Below the pieces are notes generated by a model. That model searched no databases. It was not told the origin of the DNA and saw only the letters and a list, made by a program, of their open reading frames with translations. Both the position numbers and the translations under genes were made by a program. DNA of 61,990 nucleotides from a virus, in IMG/VR virus record IMGVR_UViG_3300005537_000027, positions 1 to 61,990 of that record; one strand, written 5' to 3'. Below, one piece after another: positions 4,430-54,830 of the stretch; position 1 is the first letter of the stretch; every line of letters starts with the position of its first letter.

Positions 4430-4791
4430 CTTCGGTGCATGAACTGCTGTTGGAACTCAATCGGACCTATACCGAAATTCACGAGTTGCGTAGTGCCTTG
4501 GCTGATGCTCTTGTGACTTTCGATATGGGAGCTGAGCACGCCACCAAGTATCACCTCCGCTACTCTGCTGTCATCCACCGCGCAAGGCTGGAGAACCCGA
4601 ATGCTGACAAACGACTTTCAGTTGGTGCCCCTGGCAGCCATTGTTGTGAACCGAGCGGAACGCCAGCGCCGGAAGGTGGACACGACGGGACTGAGGGACT
4701 CGATCCAGCGCAACGGCCTCATCAACCCGATAGTGGTGACGAGGGAGATGGTGCTGGTGGCGGGGGAGCGGAGACTGACGGCGTGCACTGA
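4426..4791 (+). CDS. Small helical protein overlapping the ParB-methyltransferase gene
   Basis: GTG 4426 overlaps the previous stop as GTGA. The first 60 residues (VHELLLELNRTYTEIHELRSAL ... YHLRYSAVIHRARLENPNAD) look like a genuine helical protein. From 4601 on the frame lies beneath the ParB-methyltransferase gene and becomes a glycine/glutamate-rich shadow, so the real protein may be about 60 residues with an unusual overlap, or the tail may be tolerated read-through. Function unknown. Confidence 0.45.
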   Translation: MTSVHELLLELNRTYTEIHELRSALADALVTFDMGAEHATKYHLRYSAVIHRARLENPNADKRLSVGAPGSHCCEPSGTPAPEGGHDGTEGLDPAQRPHQPDSGDEGDGAGGGGAETDGVH

Positions 4792-5998
4792 GCTTGGGCA
4801 TGTCACCATCGCGGTAAGGTTCGCGGAGGACCTCTCGCCGTTCGAGCTCTCGGTGATTGAGCTTGAGGAGAACCTCAAGCGCACGGATCTGAGTTGGCAG
4901 GACGAGGCCCAGGCCATCGCGAAGCTCCACGAGCTTTATTCCAGCGCCGAACCGGGGTGGAGCCAGGCCAAGACCGCACAGGCCCTGAGCATGGCCCCGG
5001 CGCAAGTGTCCACGATCCTGAGAGTGGTGAAGGAGTTCGCCGACCCCCGCATCGCCGGAGCCACCGGCCTCCAACCCGCTTACAACATCATCCAGCGCGC
5101 GGACGAGCGCCGCATTGGTGATGCTATGGGGGACATCGTCCAGGCCAACGCGGATATCTTCGCGGAGCGGCTGGTGGTGGAGACAGGTGGACTTGTGCCG
5201 ACTGATGCAACCGTAGCAATCGGTAAGCCTGTCAACAAGCCTATCTTGGCAGCTACTCCGGTGGCCCCTCCGGAGTCCATCCTCAACACCTCGTTCCTGG
5301 ACTGGGCACCGCAGTACACCGGGCCCAGGTTCTCGTTCATCCACTGCGATTTCCCCTACGGGATGAATGTGTTCGGAGGAGCCATGTCCGGTCGGGACAA
5401 GTGGAACACCTACTCCGACACCCCCGACACCTACTGGGATCTGATCCGCTGCCTCTGCCTGAACCTGGACCGAGTCATGTCCCCCAGCGCCCACCTCATG
5501 TTCTGGTTCTCGATGGAGCACTATGAGGCCACCCGCCGGATCTTCCGAGACCTCGCCCCGTCGCTGGTGTTTTCCCCGTTCCCGCTGCTGTGGCAGAAGT
5601 CCGACAACGTCGGCATCTTGCCGGACTCCAACCGAGGCCCGCGCCGGATCTACGAGACCGCGATGGTCGCCTCCCGCGAGGACCGTTTCATCGTCAAACC
5701 CGTCTCCAACGCCATCGCCGCCCCCACTGACAAGGCCCACCACCCAAGCGCCAAGCCCGTCCCCGTGCTCAAACACTTCTTCCAGATGTACGTGGACGAG
5801 AACACCACGCTGCTCGATCCGACTTGCGGAGGTGCCTCGGCTCTGATCGCCGCTGAGGCTCTGGGCGCCAAGCGTGTCGCTGGGTGTGAAATGGACAAGG
5901 AGCACTGCGCCAACGGCCGTTCCGCTCTCCGCCAGTTCCGCTCCCTCCGTGCCGCCGCGCAGGTGGTCTACGAGAAGGACCGGAAAGATGGTCGCTGA
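4601..5998 (+). CDS. ParB-like N-terminal domain fused to a DNA adenine/cytosine-N4 methyltransferase
   Basis: 465 residues. Residues 7-90 form a ParB/sulfiredoxin-like domain (LRDSIQRNGLINPIVV, then AGERRLTAC with the GERR box). A helix-turn-helix-like linker follows (WSQAKTAQALSMAPAQVSTIL). The C-terminal half is an N6/N4 amino-methyltransferase: catalytic DFPY at 250-253 (a DPPY variant) and the SAM-binding DPTCGGASALIAAEALGA near 405. Such fusions usually modify phage DNA, protecting it from restriction or marking it. The ParB part may guide it to sites. Confidence 0.85.
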   Translation: MLTNDFQLVPLAAIVVNRAERQRRKVDTTGLRDSIQRNGLINPIVVTREMVLVAGERRLTACTELGHVTIAVRFAEDLSPFELSVIELEENLKRTDLSWQDEAQAIAKLHELYSSAEPGWSQAKTAQALSMAPAQVSTILRVVKEFADPRIAGATGLQPAYNIIQRADERRIGDAMGDIVQANADIFAERLVVETGGLVPTDATVAIGKPVNKPILAATPVAPPESILNTSFLDWAPQYTGPRFSFIHCDFPYGMNVFGGAMSGRDKWNTYSDTPDTYWDLIRCLCLNLDRVMSPSAHLMFWFSMEHYEATRRIFRDLAPSLVFSPFPLLWQKSDNVGILPDSNRGPRRIYETAMVASREDRFIVKPVSNAIAAPTDKAHHPSAKPVPVLKHFFQMYVDENTTLLDPTCGGASALIAAEALGAKRVAGCEMDKEHCANGRSALRQFRSLRAAAQVVYEKDRKDGR

Positions 5999-7049
5999 AC
6001 CCTTCGCCCACACCAGCGGACCGCGCGATGCCAAGGTTGTGGTCGTTGGCGAAGCGTGGGGCGAGCAAGAGGAACTCACCGGCCGTCCGTTCGTCGGCGC
6101 ATCCGGCCAGGAACTCACTCGTATGCTCACCGATGCGGGGATCTCCCGCAAGGATCTCCTCCTAACCACCACCCTCGCCATTCGCCCAACCGCGAACAAC
6201 ATGGACTCGCTCTGCGCGAGCAAGAAAGACGTGGGGTTTAATTATGCACTGGCGCCGCTCCGTCAAGGCAAATACCTCCTCCCCGAATACCTCCCGGAAC
6301 TCGCGAGACTGGAAGCGGAACTTACTGCATATCCTCGCAATCTCGTTATCGCACTCGGCGCTACTGCTTGCTGGGCTTTGCTTGGCCGTGGAGCTGTTGG
6401 TACTCTCCGCGGTGTTGTGGCGCATAGTGTGGGGTTAGCCCCAGGGCTCAAAGTCCTTCCCACCTACCACCCCAGCGCCGTGCTGCGCAATTGGGCTCTC
6501 CGTGTGATTGTCATCGCAGACCTAATCAAAGCGAAGCGTGAGAGCGAGTTCCCTGAGATCCGTCGGCCCCAACGCCAAGTCCTGGCCGACCCGAGTCTAG
6601 TCGATATTGAGGACTGGTTTAACCGGGAGGCCAAAGATGCTAGTATTCTTAGTTGTGACATCGAGACTGCTAACCGCGCAATTACTTGCATCGGGTTTGC
6701 CAGCTCCACTACATCCGCTATCTGCATTCCCTTTGCTGATAATCGATACCCTGGTGGAAGCTATTGGCCTGATCACGCTAGTGAGGTCACTGCTTGGCGT
6801 TGGGTGAAAGCGGCGCTGGAATTGCCGTGCCCCAAGCTATTCCAGAATGGTATGTATGATCTGAACTACCTGTATCGCATGGGCTTCCGAGTCCGCAATT
6901 GCCTCCACGACACGATGCTGCTCCATCACTCCATCTTCCCAGAAATGCAGAAGAGCTTGGGGTTCATGGGCAGCATCCACACCAACGAGGCCAGTTGGAA
7001 GCTCATGCGGCACAAGAAGAAGGAAGAGGAGTTGAAACGTGATGAGTGA
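5988..7049 (+). CDS. Uracil-DNA glycosylase domain fused to a PolA-type 3'-5' exonuclease domain
   Basis: 353 residues from ATG 5988, which overlaps the methyltransferase stop and has GAAGGA upstream. Residues 16-175 carry UDG-superfamily motifs (VVVGEAWGEQEE, GRPFVGASGQEL, and PTYHPSAVLR). Residues 215-345 carry DnaQ/PolA exonuclease motifs I (CDIETA) and II (FQNGMYDLNYL). The protein ends at KKEEELKRDE, where family A polymerases would continue into ExoIII and the polymerase. That continuation is found 1.3 kb downstream in the gene at 8364. Pairing base excision with proofreading suggests uracil removal at the fork. Confidence 0.85.
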   Translation: MVAEPFAHTSGPRDAKVVVVGEAWGEQEELTGRPFVGASGQELTRMLTDAGISRKDLLLTTTLAIRPTANNMDSLCASKKDVGFNYALAPLRQGKYLLPEYLPELARLEAELTAYPRNLVIALGATACWALLGRGAVGTLRGVVAHSVGLAPGLKVLPTYHPSAVLRNWALRVIVIADLIKAKRESEFPEIRRPQRQVLADPSLVDIEDWFNREAKDASILSCDIETANRAITCIGFASSTTSAICIPFADNRYPGGSYWPDHASEVTAWRWVKAALELPCPKLFQNGMYDLNYLYRMGFRVRNCLHDTMLLHHSIFPEMQKSLGFMGSIHTNEASWKLMRHKKKEEELKRDE

Positions 7050-8363: not shown

Positions 8364-9839
8364 ATGCTCATTAAAACCCACGAGCTGAAGCCCGACGACC
8401 GCCTACCGCAGAACGACCAAGTCTACAACGGCCTGGACTGCATGGTAACTCTCGAGGTCTTCTATGCCCTGCAAACGCTCTTCAACCAAGAGCCCGAGGT
8501 CTATGGGTTCGAACGTGCACTCCAGGGACCTGCCCTGGAAATGTCCATGCGCGGCTTCCGCATTGACGAGACCGAGAGGCAAATCGGAGCCCAGGCCCTC
8601 CGCACCAAGCTCAAGCACCTTACGATGGTGCTCGATCGCTTGGCCTTTGCGGTCTGGGGGAAAGGACTGAACCCTCGCAGTCCCAAGCAGCTAATCGACT
8701 TCTTCTACGGGGAGATGAAGCTGCCGGAGCACTGGAGCAGCAAGAAGGGCATCCGCCGCCTCTCCACCGATCGGGAGACCTTGGAAAAGCTCTCCATCTA
8801 CTTCCACGCCCTCCCGATCATCAACACCATCCTCGCCATCCGGGACTACGCCAAGCAGCTGGAGGTGTTGGAAACCGAGATAGACGGGGACGGCCGCTTC
8901 CGAACCTCCTTCAACATCGCTGGAACTGAAACCTGGCGTTGGTCCTCCAGCGGGAGCAGCACCGGCACAGGCCGTAACATCCAGAACATTGCCCCCGAAC
9001 TCCGGAAAATGTTCGTAGCGGACCCGGGCTACGTCCTGGTCGGCATTGACCTGGAGCAGGCGGAAAGCCGCGAGGTTGGTTGGCTCTGCGGCACGATCTT
9101 TGGGGACTGGACATATCTGGACGCCTGCTATTCGGGGGACCTTCATGTCACGACCACCAAACTCATCTGGCCCGAACTCCCCTGGACCGGAGACCCCAAG
9201 CTCGATCGTGCGATTGCCGACGAGAAGTTCTACCGAGAGTTTTCTTACCGGGATCTGGCTAAGCGTGGTGGCCATGGTAGTAATTACATGGGCACTCCTT
9301 GGACCATGGCACGGCACCTCAAGGTCGTCCTCCGTATCATGGAGAACTTCCAGCGCGCGTACTTCGGCGCGTATCCTGCAATTCCCAAGTGGCACCAGTG
9401 GGTTGCAACCCAAATCCAAACCACCCACCAACTCACCACTCCCTGGGACGTCACCAGGACCTTCTTCGGTCGTCCCAATGACGACACGACCCTCCGCGAA
9501 GCTATTGCATTTTCCCCCCAGAGTTCAACCGCCATGCGAATGAACCTGGGGCTGTACAAGGTGTGGAAGCACTTCGGGAACGCGATCCAGCTCCTGGCCC
9601 AAGTCCATGATGCGATCTACTTCCAGGTCCCCGTCACCGCCGACCTCCCCGAGGTCTGCAAGACCACCCTGGGACTGATCGACATCCGGCACGAGTACCA
9701 GGGCCATCAGCTGATCGTCCCCGGCGAGTGCAAGACTGGGTACAACTGGGCCAGCTATGACCCAAAGACCAACCCAAATGGACTGAAAAAGGGTACTGCT
9801 CTGCGCCCCCGACTTGAGGGCCTTGATCGGGTGTTCTGA
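8364..9839 (+). CDS. Family A DNA polymerase, palm/fingers part with residual ExoIII motif
   Basis: 491 residues from ATG 8364 (AGGAGC upstream). The protein opens with YNGLDCMVTLEVF (residues 21-33), the ExoIII Y-x3-D motif whose partners ExoI and ExoII are in the gene ending at 7049. Polymerase motif A is VGIDLEQAESREV near residue 228, motif B is KRGGHGSNYMGTPW near 299 and motif C is QVHDAIYF near 414. The enzyme copies the phage genome. Because the exonuclease fold is divided, the two polypeptides probably reassemble. Confidence 0.92.
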   Translation: MLIKTHELKPDDRLPQNDQVYNGLDCMVTLEVFYALQTLFNQEPEVYGFERALQGPALEMSMRGFRIDETERQIGAQALRTKLKHLTMVLDRLAFAVWGKGLNPRSPKQLIDFFYGEMKLPEHWSSKKGIRRLSTDRETLEKLSIYFHALPIINTILAIRDYAKQLEVLETEIDGDGRFRTSFNIAGTETWRWSSSGSSTGTGRNIQNIAPELRKMFVADPGYVLVGIDLEQAESREVGWLCGTIFGDWTYLDACYSGDLHVTTTKLIWPELPWTGDPKLDRAIADEKFYREFSYRDLAKRGGHGSNYMGTPWTMARHLKVVLRIMENFQRAYFGAYPAIPKWHQWVATQIQTTHQLTTPWDVTRTFFGRPNDDTTLREAIAFSPQSSTAMRMNLGLYKVWKHFGNAIQLLAQVHDAIYFQVPVTADLPEVCKTTLGLIDIRHEYQGHQLIVPGECKTGYNWASYDPKTNPNGLKKGTALRPRLEGLDRVF

Positions 9840-50739: not shown

Positions 50740-51600
50740 ATGGCTGAAAGTACCCGCCCGGACCTTGATCCGGTAGCACGCCTCACCCGCGACTTGCGCA
50801 ACGCTGCCAGAACCCTTTCGAGCGACGAGGCCAGATTTCTGGTCGACGCATACTACGCGATGCAACGAGACCGCATTCGCGCCGCCCACCAGGAACGGAC
50901 CCTCGCCGAGGGCTCCGAACCGCACGACACCATGCAGTGGTTGTTGGTGCAACGCGAGACCCTGGAAAAGCAGGTCGCTCGCGCGCTCGACGTCTACAGC
51001 AACGCGCATCCCGCTGGGGAATGGGCGCGGTCTATCTGCGGCATCGGCCCGATCATCGCGGCCGGGCTGCTGGCCCATATCGACATCACCAAAGCCCCCA
51101 GCGTCGGGCACATTTGGCGTTTCGCCGGCCTCGATCCCACGGTCAAGTGGGAGAAGGGTCAGAAGCGGCCCTGGAACGGTGCGCTCAAGCGTCTCTGCTG
51201 GCTCATCGGGGAGAGCTTCACCAAGGTCTCCTCGAACGAGAACGACACCTACGGGAAGATCTACAAGGCCCGGAAGGAACTCGAAACCCAGCGTAACGAG
51301 GCGGGGCATTACGCGGACCAAGCCAAGGCTGCCCTGGCCGCGAAGAAGTTCGGAGCGGACACGCAGGCCCGGAAACACTACGAGGCCGGCCGTCTCCCGC
51401 CGGCACGTATTCATCTCCGTGCGCAGCGGTATGCGGTGAAGCTCTTCCTCGCGCACTTCCACCATGTGTACTACGAGATCCACTTCGGCAAGGCTCCGCC
51501 GATGCCCTATATTTTCACCGCCGAGGCCGCGATCACCCACGGCCAGCACGTTCACTATATCGCGCCCCCGAACTGGCCGATCGCCCAAGCGGCGGAGTAG
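50740..51600 (+). CDS. IS110-family C-terminal (Transposase_20) helix-hairpin-helix protein without the RuvC-like domain
   Basis: 286 residues (GGGAG upstream). Residues 95-165 hold the helix-hairpin-helix and following strands of IS110/IS116 transposases (ICGIGPIIAAGLLAHID, then WRFAGLDPTVKWEKG and ALKRLCWLIGES). The N-terminal 90 residues are helical and lack the DEDD RuvC-like fold of active IS110 enzymes. The position of the catalytic serine (SG before the arginine-rich helix) reads KWEKG. It is therefore probably a DNA- or RNA-binding derivative, not a working transposase. The repeat array begins 24 bases after its stop. Confidence 0.78.
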   Translation: MAESTRPDLDPVARLTRDLRNAARTLSSDEARFLVDAYYAMQRDRIRAAHQERTLAEGSEPHDTMQWLLVQRETLEKQVARALDVYSNAHPAGEWARSICGIGPIIAAGLLAHIDITKAPSVGHIWRFAGLDPTVKWEKGQKRPWNGALKRLCWLIGESFTKVSSNENDTYGKIYKARKELETQRNEAGHYADQAKAALAAKKFGADTQARKHYEAGRLPPARIHLRAQRYAVKLFLAHFHHVYYEIHFGKAPPMPYIFTAEAAITHGQHVHYIAPPNWPIAQAAE

Positions 51601-51624
51601 CCCAGGCGCCCAGCCGGAAGGATG

Positions 51625-53294
51625 GAGTGTACCTACGAAGCTGAGCGAACCGCGATTCTGGAGTGTACCATAGCTGCCGAGTGAGCCTGCATATCTGAGT
51701 GTTCCGAGCTTCGCAAGTGAGCCAGCTAGGGGTTGATTGTACCGTGAAGTGGGAGCGAGCCGTTGAACTTGAGTGTACCACAGCTTGAGAGCGAGCCAAT
51801 GGAGTTGAGTGCACCAAAACATTGGAGCGAGTCGCCGTATTAGAGCGCACCGTGTACGAAGAGCGAGCCAGAACTTAAGAGTGTTCCGAAGTATGTGAGC
51901 GAGCCCGAACCCGTGAGTGTATCGAAATTGCCGAGCGAGCCTTAGGCATTGAGAGCGCCGTGCAAGTGGAGCGAGCCGTCGAGCAAGAGTGTACCATTGC
52001 AAAGGAGCGAACCGGGTGATTTGAGTGTACCCGCGTTGCGGAGTGAACCTTGAGACGGAGTGTGCCGTAGAGCTGAGTGAGCCGCAAGTTGTGAGAGTTC
52101 CGTTGGTAGCGAGCGAACCGAGCGTATGTGAGCACCGATATTGTAGAGTGAGCCATGTAGGTGTAGTGTACCACGCCACATGAGCGAGCCATTAATCTTG
52201 AGCGTTCCATTGTCAGGGAGCGAGCCGCTCGTAAGGAGTGTTCCGTATCGCGTGAGCGAGCCACTGGTTACGAGTGTACCGCGTTATGAGAGCGAGTCAT
52301 TTGTGATGAGTGTACCAAAACCTATGAACGAGCCATATGCTCAGAGCGCACCGTATCTAGAGAGCGAGCCATATGCTCAGAGTGTTCCGTTCCTCTTGAG
52401 CGAGCCATTGATCTGTAGTGTACCGTGGTATGAGAGCGAGCCTTTTGCCCAGAGCGCACCGTCATTTGCGAGCGAACCAAGCAGCATGAGCGCCCCGAAC
52501 GTGCTGAGTGAGACGAATAACTCGAGAGTACCGTAAAAAGGGATCGAGCCATGATCGTTGAGAGTACCATTGTGAATGAGCGAGCCAGCTTGTTAGAGAG
52601 TCCCGTATCCTGAGAGCGAGCCAACTTGCTAGAGTGTCCCATCACTGGCGAGCGAGCCTTAATTGCAGAGCGTACCGTAAAGTGTGATCGAGCCGTAGCT
52701 GTAGACGAGCGAACCACAAGCGCCGAGAGTACCATCATTGACGAGTGAGCCACCAGCGCTGAGTGTACCGTGACCCCGAAGCGAGCCCTATCAGCCACGA
52801 GTGTACCGTTGTCCGGGAGCGAACCATAACATATGAGCGTCCCGAAGCCTATGAGTGAGCCAACGGCAATGAGTGTGCCGTACCCTGTGAGCGAGCCGAA
52901 CACCGAGAGAGTACCAGCCCGCATGAGCGAGCCACTGTCCTTGGAGTGTACCATACCACGGGAGCGAGACAAACTGGTCGAGAGTACCGTGTCAAAGGAT
53001 CGAACCGAGAGTTTTGCGTGTACCGCTGTGCCTGAGTGAGCCGACAGCTTTGAGCATACCGAAACGCTTGAGCAAGCCGTTATGGCCGATTGTACCACTT
53101 CACCTGAGCGAGCCATGCTGTTCGAGTGTACCATTCCACGGGAGCGAGCCAGAACGTCCGAGCGTACCGTTCCATTTGAGCGAGCCATGATGTCCGAGAG
53201 CACCATTCCATCTGAGCGAGCCGTTATGTCCTAGCGTACCGTTCCGCCTGAGCGAACCTTCTTCGCCGAGAGCGCCATCTTCGCCGAGTCACCC
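51625..53294. repeat. 18-bp tandem array: alternating GAGYGTACC / GAGCGAGCC with 9-nt variable segments
   Basis: About 93 units of 18 bp. Odd units carry GAGYGTACC (variants GAGTGTTCC, GAGCGCACC, GAGAGTACC), even units GAGCGAGCC (variants GAGTGAGCC, GAGCGAACC); the next base is usually a purine, then about 8 variable bases. A pair is 36 bp. The phase is kept for long runs, with isolated 1-3-base slips. A few variable segments recur (ATATGCTCA twice). Stops interrupt the reading frames of both strands, so a single protein is unlikely. It lies between the transposase-like and helicase genes and ends 15 bases before the helicase ATG. Confidence 0.92.
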
Positions 53295-53309
53295 CTACCG
53301 GAGCTAAGA

Positions 53310-54830
53310 ATGGATTTCACCCCAACCGACGAGCAAGCCGCAATAGTCCAGGCCGCGCTCACCACCACTGACTCGTTGATGGTTGTCTCTTACGCTGGGT
53401 GCACCAAGACCACAGCACTTAAGCTCGTGGCCAACGCCCTTCCACCGGGACCGGCTCTGGCCTTGGCCTTCAGCGTTCCTACCAAGAAGGAACTTGAGCG
53501 CCACTTCCCTGCCCATATCACGATCATGACCCTCAATGGGCTCGGCCATCGTGCCTGGGCTAAGGCCGTCAACAAGCCCCTTGTCGTGGACGACCGTAAG
53601 GTTGGGCGCCTTATCACTCGTGTCGCCCGAGAGGAGAGCTTCGATCTCTCCTCTGAGCAATGGACCGCAGTCCGTGCCCTGGTCAACAGCGCCCAGGTCA
53701 ACGGTCTTGTCCCTTCCTCCTACCCCCACAAGGGTCTCGTGGCAGACCGCCCAGAGATCTGGATGGACATGGCCGATATGCTGATGCTACCGGACGCCGA
53801 GCCCCTACTCCCGCTGGCCCGAGCCACCCTGGTCGCTGCCATCCAGGAGGCATTCCAGGGCACCATCTCCTACGCCGACCAGATCTACATGAGCGCGCTG
53901 TTCAACGGCGCCTTCCCCCGCTACCCGCTCGTCATGGTCGACGAAGCCCAAGACCTCTCCCCTCTCAACCACGTCCAGATCAAGCGCGCAGCGCTCGGCA
54001 GGCTCATCGTAGTGGGAGACCCCAAGCAGGCCATTTATGGCTGGCGCGGGGCAGACCACACCTCGATGGACACCCTGCGGACGCTCCGCAAGGACTGGAC
54101 TGACCTAGCGCTCACCCAGACCTTCCGATGCCCCTCGGAGGTGGTGGCCCGGCAGCAGGTTCACGCCCCTGGTTTCACCGCTGCCCCAAAGAACCCGGCC
54201 GGGCTTGTGCTGGAGTGGCACCATCAACACACCCCCTGGACCTGGGCCTTGGTGGACCAGCCCCGGAAGACCATCGGCGTGCTTTGCCGCAACAACGCCC
54301 CACTGCTCGGACTGGCCATGAAGCTCATCCGCCAGGGGGTAGGGTGCGTTATGGCAGGGCGGGACATCGGCAAGGGCCTTGTGGCTCTTGCCCGTAAAAT
54401 CGTTCCTGTGGACTCCATCCCCGCCGAGGAGTGCAAAGCCCTCATCAACCAATGGGCGGATGATGAGATCATCCTGGCCAAGGCCAACGACAAACTCGAA
54501 AAGGTCGCCGGGATCGAGGACCGCCGAGATTGCCTTCTGGTTGTGCTGGAAACTGGAGTGGCCGACGCGGGGACTCTCCGCAACATTCTCACGGACTTGT
54601 TCTCCCGTGAGGCCGGCCGAGTCACCCTTTCCAGCATCCACCGAGCCAAGGGCTTGGAATGGGACATCGTGGTTCACCTGGACCCGTGGCGTATCCCCTC
54701 CAAGCAGGCTCGCAAAGCCGCCCAGCTCGGCGACCAGCGCCCCCTCCAGCAGGAGTTGAACCTGCGCTACGTGTGCGAAACCCGAACCAAGCACACCCTT
54801 ATCCTGGCCAACCTGGAGGACTTCACATGA
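53310..54830 (+). CDS. UvrD/PcrA-like SF1 helicase
   Basis: 506 residues. Motif I is VVSYAGCTKTTALKL, where the usual G-x-G-K-T reads G-C-T-K-T; motif II VMVDEAQDLSPLN; motif III VVGDPKQAIYGWRGA; motif IV region LTQTFRCPSEVV; motif V VTLSSIHRAKGLEWD; motif VI LRYVCETRTKHTLIL. It is shorter than PcrA (about 720), lacking much of the 1B/2B insertions. A 3'-5' unwinding role in replication or repair is likely. Its ribosome site GGAG follows the last repeat of the array. Confidence 0.88.
   Translation: MDFTPTDEQAAIVQAALTTTDSLMVVSYAGCTKTTALKLVANALPPGPALALAFSVPTKKELERHFPAHITIMTLNGLGHRAWAKAVNKPLVVDDRKVGRLITRVAREESFDLSSEQWTAVRALVNSAQVNGLVPSSYPHKGLVADRPEIWMDMADMLMLPDAEPLLPLARATLVAAIQEAFQGTISYADQIYMSALFNGAFPRYPLVMVDEAQDLSPLNHVQIKRAALGRLIVVGDPKQAIYGWRGADHTSMDTLRTLRKDWTDLALTQTFRCPSEVVARQQVHAPGFTAAPKNPAGLVLEWHHQHTPWTWALVDQPRKTIGVLCRNNAPLLGLAMKLIRQGVGCVMAGRDIGKGLVALARKIVPVDSIPAEECKALINQWADDEIILAKANDKLEKVAGIEDRRDCLLVVLETGVADAGTLRNILTDLFSREAGRVTLSSIHRAKGLEWDIVVHLDPWRIPSKQARKAAQLGDQRPLQQELNLRYVCETRTKHTLILANLEDFT

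What the first reader, a model, noticed from the sequence alone, without database searches (positions are those of the whole stretch)
51625..53294. 1.67-kb array of alternating 9-mers with 9-nt variable segments
About 93 units of 18 bp keep a strict A-B-A-B order: GAGYGTACC, 9 variable bases, GAGCGAGCC, 9 variable bases. The constant parts are held against drift while the variable parts are nearly all different, with a few recurring (ATATGCTCA twice; GTTATGGCC and GTTATGTCC). Phase slips of 1-3 bases and stop codons argue against one repeated protein. A long regular ladder of constant and hypervariable blocks in a compact phage genome must cost fitness unless useful. Possible roles: a dense binding array for a phage or host DNA-binding protein, a transcribed RNA scaffold or sponge exposing many 9-nt segments, or an origin. 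I know of no named element with this design.
Basis: seen in the sequence. Interest (0 to 1): 0.92.

Follow-up and report, generated by a model that had tools for sequence, protein, structure and literature searches.

The report
Phage TIGR guide-RNA array with TasA
The striped 1.67-kb stretch is a phage's library of about 46 short paired guide RNAs next to the gene for the protein that carries them, a long member of the TIGR-Tas family of RNA-guided DNA-binding systems described in 2025, whose natural targets are still unknown.

Summary
The array occupies window 51612-53290 on the + strand: 94 alternating 9-mers separated by variable segments that are almost always 9 nt. The ORF ending 11 nt upstream (50740-51600) is a solo Nop-domain TasA: profile hits to TasR and TasH, and an AlphaFold model whose best Foldseek hits are TasR and TasH.

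The strongest evidence is internal. GAGCGAGCC is the edge repeat. Its positions 7 and 8 base-pair with positions 4 and 3 of the next edge repeat 36 nt downstream (47/47 and 46/47 pairs, with compensatory changes) and with no other copy. That is the signature of 36-nt tigRNAs cut inside each edge. GAGYGTACC is the loop repeat. Forty-three of 50 IMG/VR relatives gave clear arrays with diverged repeats.

Guides show no targets above chance in the phage itself, in relatives, or in limited viral and host scans; self-regulation is disfavoured. Most likely role, inferred: nuclease-free, RNA-guided binding of competitor DNA. Verdict: a new, unusually long member of a known kind; target and function remain open.

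The parts
50740..51600 (+). tasA: solo Nop-domain (Transposase_20-related) Tas protein, 286 aa, no nuclease domain
   Evidence: Pfam PF02371 E 4.5e-5; PHROG 4285 E 1.5e-50; PDB TasR 9mty 3e-14 and TasH 21kl 2e-8, 2.8e-24 and 4.4e-13 with a family profile; AlphaFold model pLDDT 85.6, top 11 Foldseek hits all TasR/TasH
51612..53290 (+). TIGR array: 48 edge repeats (consensus GAGCGAGCC, first and last truncated), 46 loop repeats (GAGYGTACC), 46 regular dual-spacer units plus one loop-less unit
   Evidence: parsing and covariation
51607..51615 (+). first, 5'-truncated edge repeat (CGCCC|AGCC)
   Evidence: matches the description of TIGR array starts in PMC12045711
53286..53294 (+). last, 3'-truncated edge repeat (GAGT then non-consensus); its T pairs with A7 of the edge at 53250
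52686..52724 (+). irregular unit: edge GATCGAGCC, 12 nt, edge GAGCGAACC, spacer; the loop repeat and one spacer are missing
53070..53285 (+). 3'-terminal cluster of units with related spacers (A: GTTATGGCC, ATGATGTCC, GTTATGTCC; B: ATTCCATCT, GTTCCATTT, GTTCCGCCT), suggesting duplication then divergence
   Evidence: TRF period-72 rows
53310..54830 (+). neighbouring UvrD/Rep-like helicase, ATG 15 nt after the last repeat-like 9-mer; not a conserved partner of tasA in relatives
   Evidence: Pfam PF00580 5.7e-14; neighbourhood clustering

Best explanation
This is a TIGR-TasA locus. A transcript running from tasA through the array is cut once inside each edge repeat (GAGCG|AGCC) into 36-nt tigRNAs of the form AGCC - spacer A - GAGYGUACC loop - spacer B - GAGCG. 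The ends of each tigRNA pair through edge positions 7-4' and 8-3'. A TasA dimer holds the edge and loop box C/D-like motifs and presents two short guides, one for each strand of a DNA target lying side by side. TasA has no nuclease domain, so it most likely binds and bends or blocks the target, silencing competing mobile DNA or phages, rather than cutting it. Shown here: protein family and fold; array architecture; unit boundaries by covariation; conservation in relatives. Inferred from the published system: processing, dimer loading, dual-strand DNA targeting. Speculative: the competitor-silencing role. The confidence given is for the identity as a TIGR-TasA locus producing dual-guide tigRNAs; for the competitor-silencing role alone it is about 0.35.
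For: TasA homology to TasR/TasH by sequence and fold. Array directly beside tasA in the window, and array calls in 43 of 50 IMG/VR relatives with diverged edge/loop sequences, plus arrays beside homologues in bacterial genomes such as Acidobacteriaceae KBS 96 and Halomonas sp. NO4. Edge position 7 pairs with position 4 of the next edge in 47/47 cases (37 GC, 9 AU, 1 GU; shuffle mean 39.9; none of 20,000 shuffles reaches 47), and position 8 with position 3 in 46/47. No excess at lag 0, 2 or 3, none for the loop repeat, and the same rule in relatives. In 55 tasA loci no neighbouring gene is shared widely, so tasA plus array is the conserved unit. Guides show no match to the phage's own genome above chance. 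Units retained in related phages differ at about 3% of spacer sites against 5-28% of 4-fold sites in tasA, while other units are missing or unrelated.
Against: No expression or processing data. No natural target found for any guide, so the DNA-silencing role rests on analogy. No predicted rho-independent terminator after the array, unlike typical TIGR arrays: the helicase gene starts within 20 nt. The low divergence of retained spacers is partly selected by how homologous units were recognised, and local recombination could also explain it. The Foldseek TM-scores (0.5-0.6 on the query) are moderate.
Confidence: 0.93

Rival explanations
1. TIGR-TasA regulates the phage's own genes: the guides bind sites in its own genome.
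For: TasA lacks a nuclease, so self-binding would not cut the genome; the locus lies in a block of same-strand genes.
Against: 46 guides against the 62-kb genome give no hit with 2 or fewer mismatches in the expected geometry, and with 3 mismatches not more than permuted guide pairs (3 hits against 1-8 in controls). Spacer GC is 0.43-0.47 against 0.61 for the phage. The record may be incomplete, so a missing part was not searched.
Confidence: 0.05
2. Guides act on the host chromosome (host take-over, counter-defence, or help for an integrase).
For: Suggested in PMC12045711 as possible roles; tasA homologues sit in bacterial genomes.
Against: Five guides of the KBS 96 array have no exact target in that 6.7-Mb genome. 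The window's host is unknown, so this was not tested for its own guides.
Confidence: 0.2
3. A DNA element: a dense binding array or replication origin for a phage or host protein.
For: Regular spacing and conserved 9-mers.
Against: Compensatory changes link each edge only to the next edge copy, as RNA pairing within one unit predicts; tasA adjacency is conserved; arrays occur in several places in some phages (L028, L029, L038).
Confidence: 0.02
4. A translated repeat protein on either strand.
For: Antisense ORFs of 294 and 492 aa overlap the array.
Against: The 36-nt period alone keeps frames open; spacer-length changes of 8, 10, 11 and 12 nt shift the frame; one ORF runs antisense across tasA itself.
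Confidence: 0.01

Closest known systems
TIGR-TasA, dual-repeat type (e.g. Flavonifractor plautii FpTIGR; Faure et al. 2025, PMC12045711)
   Same: Solo Nop-domain protein beside an array of two alternating ~9-10-nt repeats with 8-9-nt spacers, 36-nt unit, truncated first and last edge repeats, box C-like CCR end, covarying edge pair.
   Different: About 46 units where 5-15 are usual; repeats GAGCGAGCC/GAGYGTACC start with GAG rather than UG; no terminator, array followed at once by a helicase gene.
TIGR-TasR and TIGR-TasH (PDB 9mty; 21kl, 9w02-9w04)
   Same: Nop/coiled-coil core and array logic; best sequence and fold matches.
   Different: No RuvC or HNH domain in this protein.
IS110-family transposase with bridge RNA (IS621, 8wt6)
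   Same: Related C-terminal domain (Pfam Transposase_20) and a dual-guide RNA.
   Different: No DEDD catalytic domain (PF01548 absent); multi-unit array instead of one bridge RNA.
Box C/D snoRNP
   Same: Nop domain and paired guides held by C/D motifs (per PMC12045711).
   Different: Guides in a tandem array with compact 9-10-nt repeats; K-turns, L7 and fibrillarin were not looked for beyond the family scans and none appeared.
CRISPR arrays, type IV and V-M
   Same: Repeat/spacer array; possible nuclease-free interference with mobile elements.
   Different: Two alternating short repeats, two short guides per unit, no cas or adaptation genes seen; units change throughout the array rather than at one end.

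Membership tests
TIGR-Tas (dual-repeat) | Nop-domain Tas protein encoded beside the array | tested here: met
   array starts 11 nt after the tasA stop codon
TIGR-Tas (dual-repeat) | Two distinct alternating 8-12-nt repeats separated by ~9-nt spacers, units repeated | tested here: met
TIGR-Tas (dual-repeat) | Array begins and ends with truncated edge repeats | tested here: met
   edges at 51607 and 53286 keep the half that pairs
TIGR-Tas (dual-repeat) | Edge repeat pair supported by covariation | tested here: met
TIGR-Tas (dual-repeat) | Box C (CCA) and box D (UG) motifs, covarying between edge and loop | tested here: inconclusive
   both repeats end CC followed by a purine (box C-like) and both start GAG; no conserved UG. 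The paper states that the motifs can diverge but almost always covary between edge and loop.
TIGR-Tas (dual-repeat) | Rho-independent terminator after the array (described as typical, not defining) | tested here: not met
   none at the array end
TIGR-Tas (dual-repeat) | Transcription and processing into 36-nt tigRNAs bound by Tas | not testable with these tools
   needs RNA sequencing
TIGR-Tas (dual-repeat) | Tandem-spacer recognition of both DNA strands | not testable with these tools
   no natural target found
TasA subtype | No RuvC or HNH domain | tested here: met
   286 aa; only PF02371 found; matched part begins where the TasR nuclease has ended (residue 37 here = 116 in TasR)
IS110 transposon | N-terminal DEDD transposase domain | tested here: not met
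   no PF01548 in the record
CRISPR | Single repeat type and cas genes | tested here: not met
   two repeat types; no Cas family among the proteins scanned

The most novel reading that the evidence does not exclude
A nuclease-free TasA armed with about 46 guides acts as a phage-borne, multi-target, RNA-guided silencer of rival mobile DNA, keeping useful guides under selection and replacing others, without any adaptation machinery.
Probability: 0.35. Interest if true: 0.75.

Novelty: new member of a known kind. Interest (0 to 1): 0.45.

Why it matters
The function and natural targets of TasA, and how TIGR arrays gain guides, are stated as open in the discovery paper. This phage carries a much longer array than usual, and related phages carry dozens of comparable arrays with partly shared units, so guide retention and turnover can be measured. 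The unit-by-unit edge covariation gives a simple sequence test for where a tigRNA begins and ends in any array.

Tried and rejected
Target search for the window's 46 guides in its own genome and in 50 related loci, in four geometries with permuted-pair controls: no excess. The same for all guides of all relatives, with 9+9 and 8+8 nt and gaps 0-4: no excess. Whole-IMG/VR exact scans of five guide pairs: 0-8 hits each; the hits looked at shared no target gene apart from one related pair of contigs. Exact targets of five guides of the KBS 96 array in its host genome: none. Shared units between the window and relatives: none (one search found only a single matching spacer in L096). Rfam: no hit. 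A conserved helper gene next to tasA: none, the helicase is not conserved. I first labelled GAGCGAGCC as the loop; covariation reversed this. L023 (206 repeats) does not show the edge-pair rule in my parse, probably because its repeats are in another register; not resolved.

Full report
Observation. A dynamic-programming parse of 51601-53320 finds two alternating 9-mers with 9-nt variable segments in 85 of 95 intervals; a refined parse gives 48 copies of GAGCGAGCC-type and 46 of GAGYGTACC-type repeats. Self-identity at a lag of 36 reaches 0.70 and is confined to this stretch of the window. A strict two-repeat pattern occurs six times and never in 100 dinucleotide shuffles. Spacers of 8, 10, 11 and 12 nt occur, and one unit (52686-52724) lacks its loop repeat.

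Protein. The ORF 50740-51600 on the same strand ends 11 nt before the first repeat half. It matches Pfam Transposase_20, PHROG 4285 'transposase', and by phmmer the solved TasR (9mty, 3e-14) and TasH (21kl, 2e-8); with a 23-member family profile these become 2.8e-24 and 4.4e-13. No DEDD, RuvC or HNH domain was found. The AlphaFold model (pLDDT 85.6) has TasR and TasH as its first 11 Foldseek matches, followed by IS621 and ISCro4. By the definitions in PMC12045711 this is TasA.

Which repeat is which. In the published system the tigRNA runs from the middle of one edge repeat to the middle of the next, and the two edge halves pair. I tested this inside the array. In GAGCGAGCC, position 7 of copy i and position 4 of copy i+1 form a standard pair in 47 of 47 cases: 37 G-C, 9 A-U, 1 G-U. 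None of 20,000 shuffles reaches 47 (mean 39.9). Position 8 with position 3 of the next copy pairs in 46 of 47, including compensatory A-U (two) and U-A changes, for example 52506 GAGTGAGAC followed by 52542 GATCGAGCC, and 52290 GAGCGAGTC followed by 52326 GAACGAGCC. There is no excess within a copy or at two or three copies' distance, and none for GAGYGTACC. So GAGCGAGCC is the edge, GAGYGTACC the loop, and the tigRNA is AGCC-A-GAGYGUACC-B-GAGCG. The truncated first and last edges obey the same rule. The same covariation is seen in relatives such as L004-L006, L009-L014, L025 and L042. This speaks against a pure DNA-binding array, an origin or a translated repeat as the main explanation.

Relatives. 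A scan of IMG/VR with the protein gave 50 loci; 43 gave array calls with a score above 100, the repeats diverging but keeping the edge rule in most. Some contigs hold several arrays (L028, L029, L038). A scan of bacterial genomes gave homologues in, for example, Acidobacteriaceae bacterium KBS 96, Halomonas sp. NO4 and Candidatus Propionivibrio, also beside arrays. Among 55 tasA loci no neighbouring gene is widely shared, so tasA and array are the unit; the UvrD-like helicase after the window's array is local. The window's phage has a P22-like portal protein, a terminase and a family A DNA polymerase.

Guides. The first spacer base is a purine in more than 90% of all guides, so the repeat is best read as 10 nt and the guide as 8 nt plus the box C purine. 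The window's spacers are poorer in G+C (0.43-0.47) than the phage (0.61). Related phages share collinear units. Units recognised as homologous (two or fewer spacer mismatches) differ at 42 of 1260 spacer sites and 55 of 1260 repeat sites, whereas 4-fold sites in tasA differ by 5-28%; other units are missing or unrelated. This suggests that retained guides are under constraint while others turn over, with the caveat that recognition of homologous units favours similar spacers and that recombination was not excluded.

Targets. With the geometry that follows from the published 3' overhangs (spacer A, 0-2 nt, reverse complement of spacer B), the window's guides have no target in its own genome or in relatives beyond permuted controls. 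Nor do all guides together in 1.4 Mb (the exact hits of that geometry are the loci fetched by pattern), five guide pairs in all IMG/VR, or five guides of KBS 96 in their host genome. Self-targeting is therefore unlikely; host and competitor targets remain open.

Verdict. A new, unusually long member of the TIGR-TasA family. Processing and DNA binding are inferred from the published members; silencing of rival DNA is my best guess for its role, not shown.

Noticed in passing
window 60846-61988 (+), runs off the end: TROVE (Ro60-like) RNA-binding protein with a VWA-like domain: Pfam PF05731 1.6e-13, PHROG 850 3e-40. No Y RNA was reported by Rfam in the window.
   Followed up: partly
window 5874-7049 and 8364-9839 (+): Uracil-DNA glycosylase domain fused to a 3'-5' exonuclease-like domain, followed after 1.3 kb (MazG-like, DUF7768 genes) by a family A DNA polymerase domain; together they match one long PHROG polymerase (phrog_17) in two parts.
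   Followed up: partly
window 4601-5998 (+): ParB-like N-terminal domain fused to an N6/N4 DNA methylase; ParB-like genes were reported in operons with some tasA genes, but here it lies 45 kb away.
   Followed up: no
window 53070-53285: The last units share related spacers in both A and B, as if one tigRNA had been duplicated and diverged.
   Followed up: partly
window 51625-53285, spacer B positions 2 and 5: Spacer B of this array is C or T at position 5 in 83% of units and T at position 2 in 61%, a bias not seen in the pooled relatives.
   Followed up: no
L023 10930-14733: A 3.8-kb array with about 206 repeats, the longest seen, with a 36/37-nt period and divergent repeats that do not fit the edge-pair rule in my register.
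   Followed up: no
L060 11600-12100; L062 5400-5900: Arrays with 35- and 34-nt periods, GAGCGAGCC-like repeats and a different second repeat (GATGTAGCA; GATGYTCA) in Chloroflexi and Woesearchaeota genome bins.
   Followed up: no
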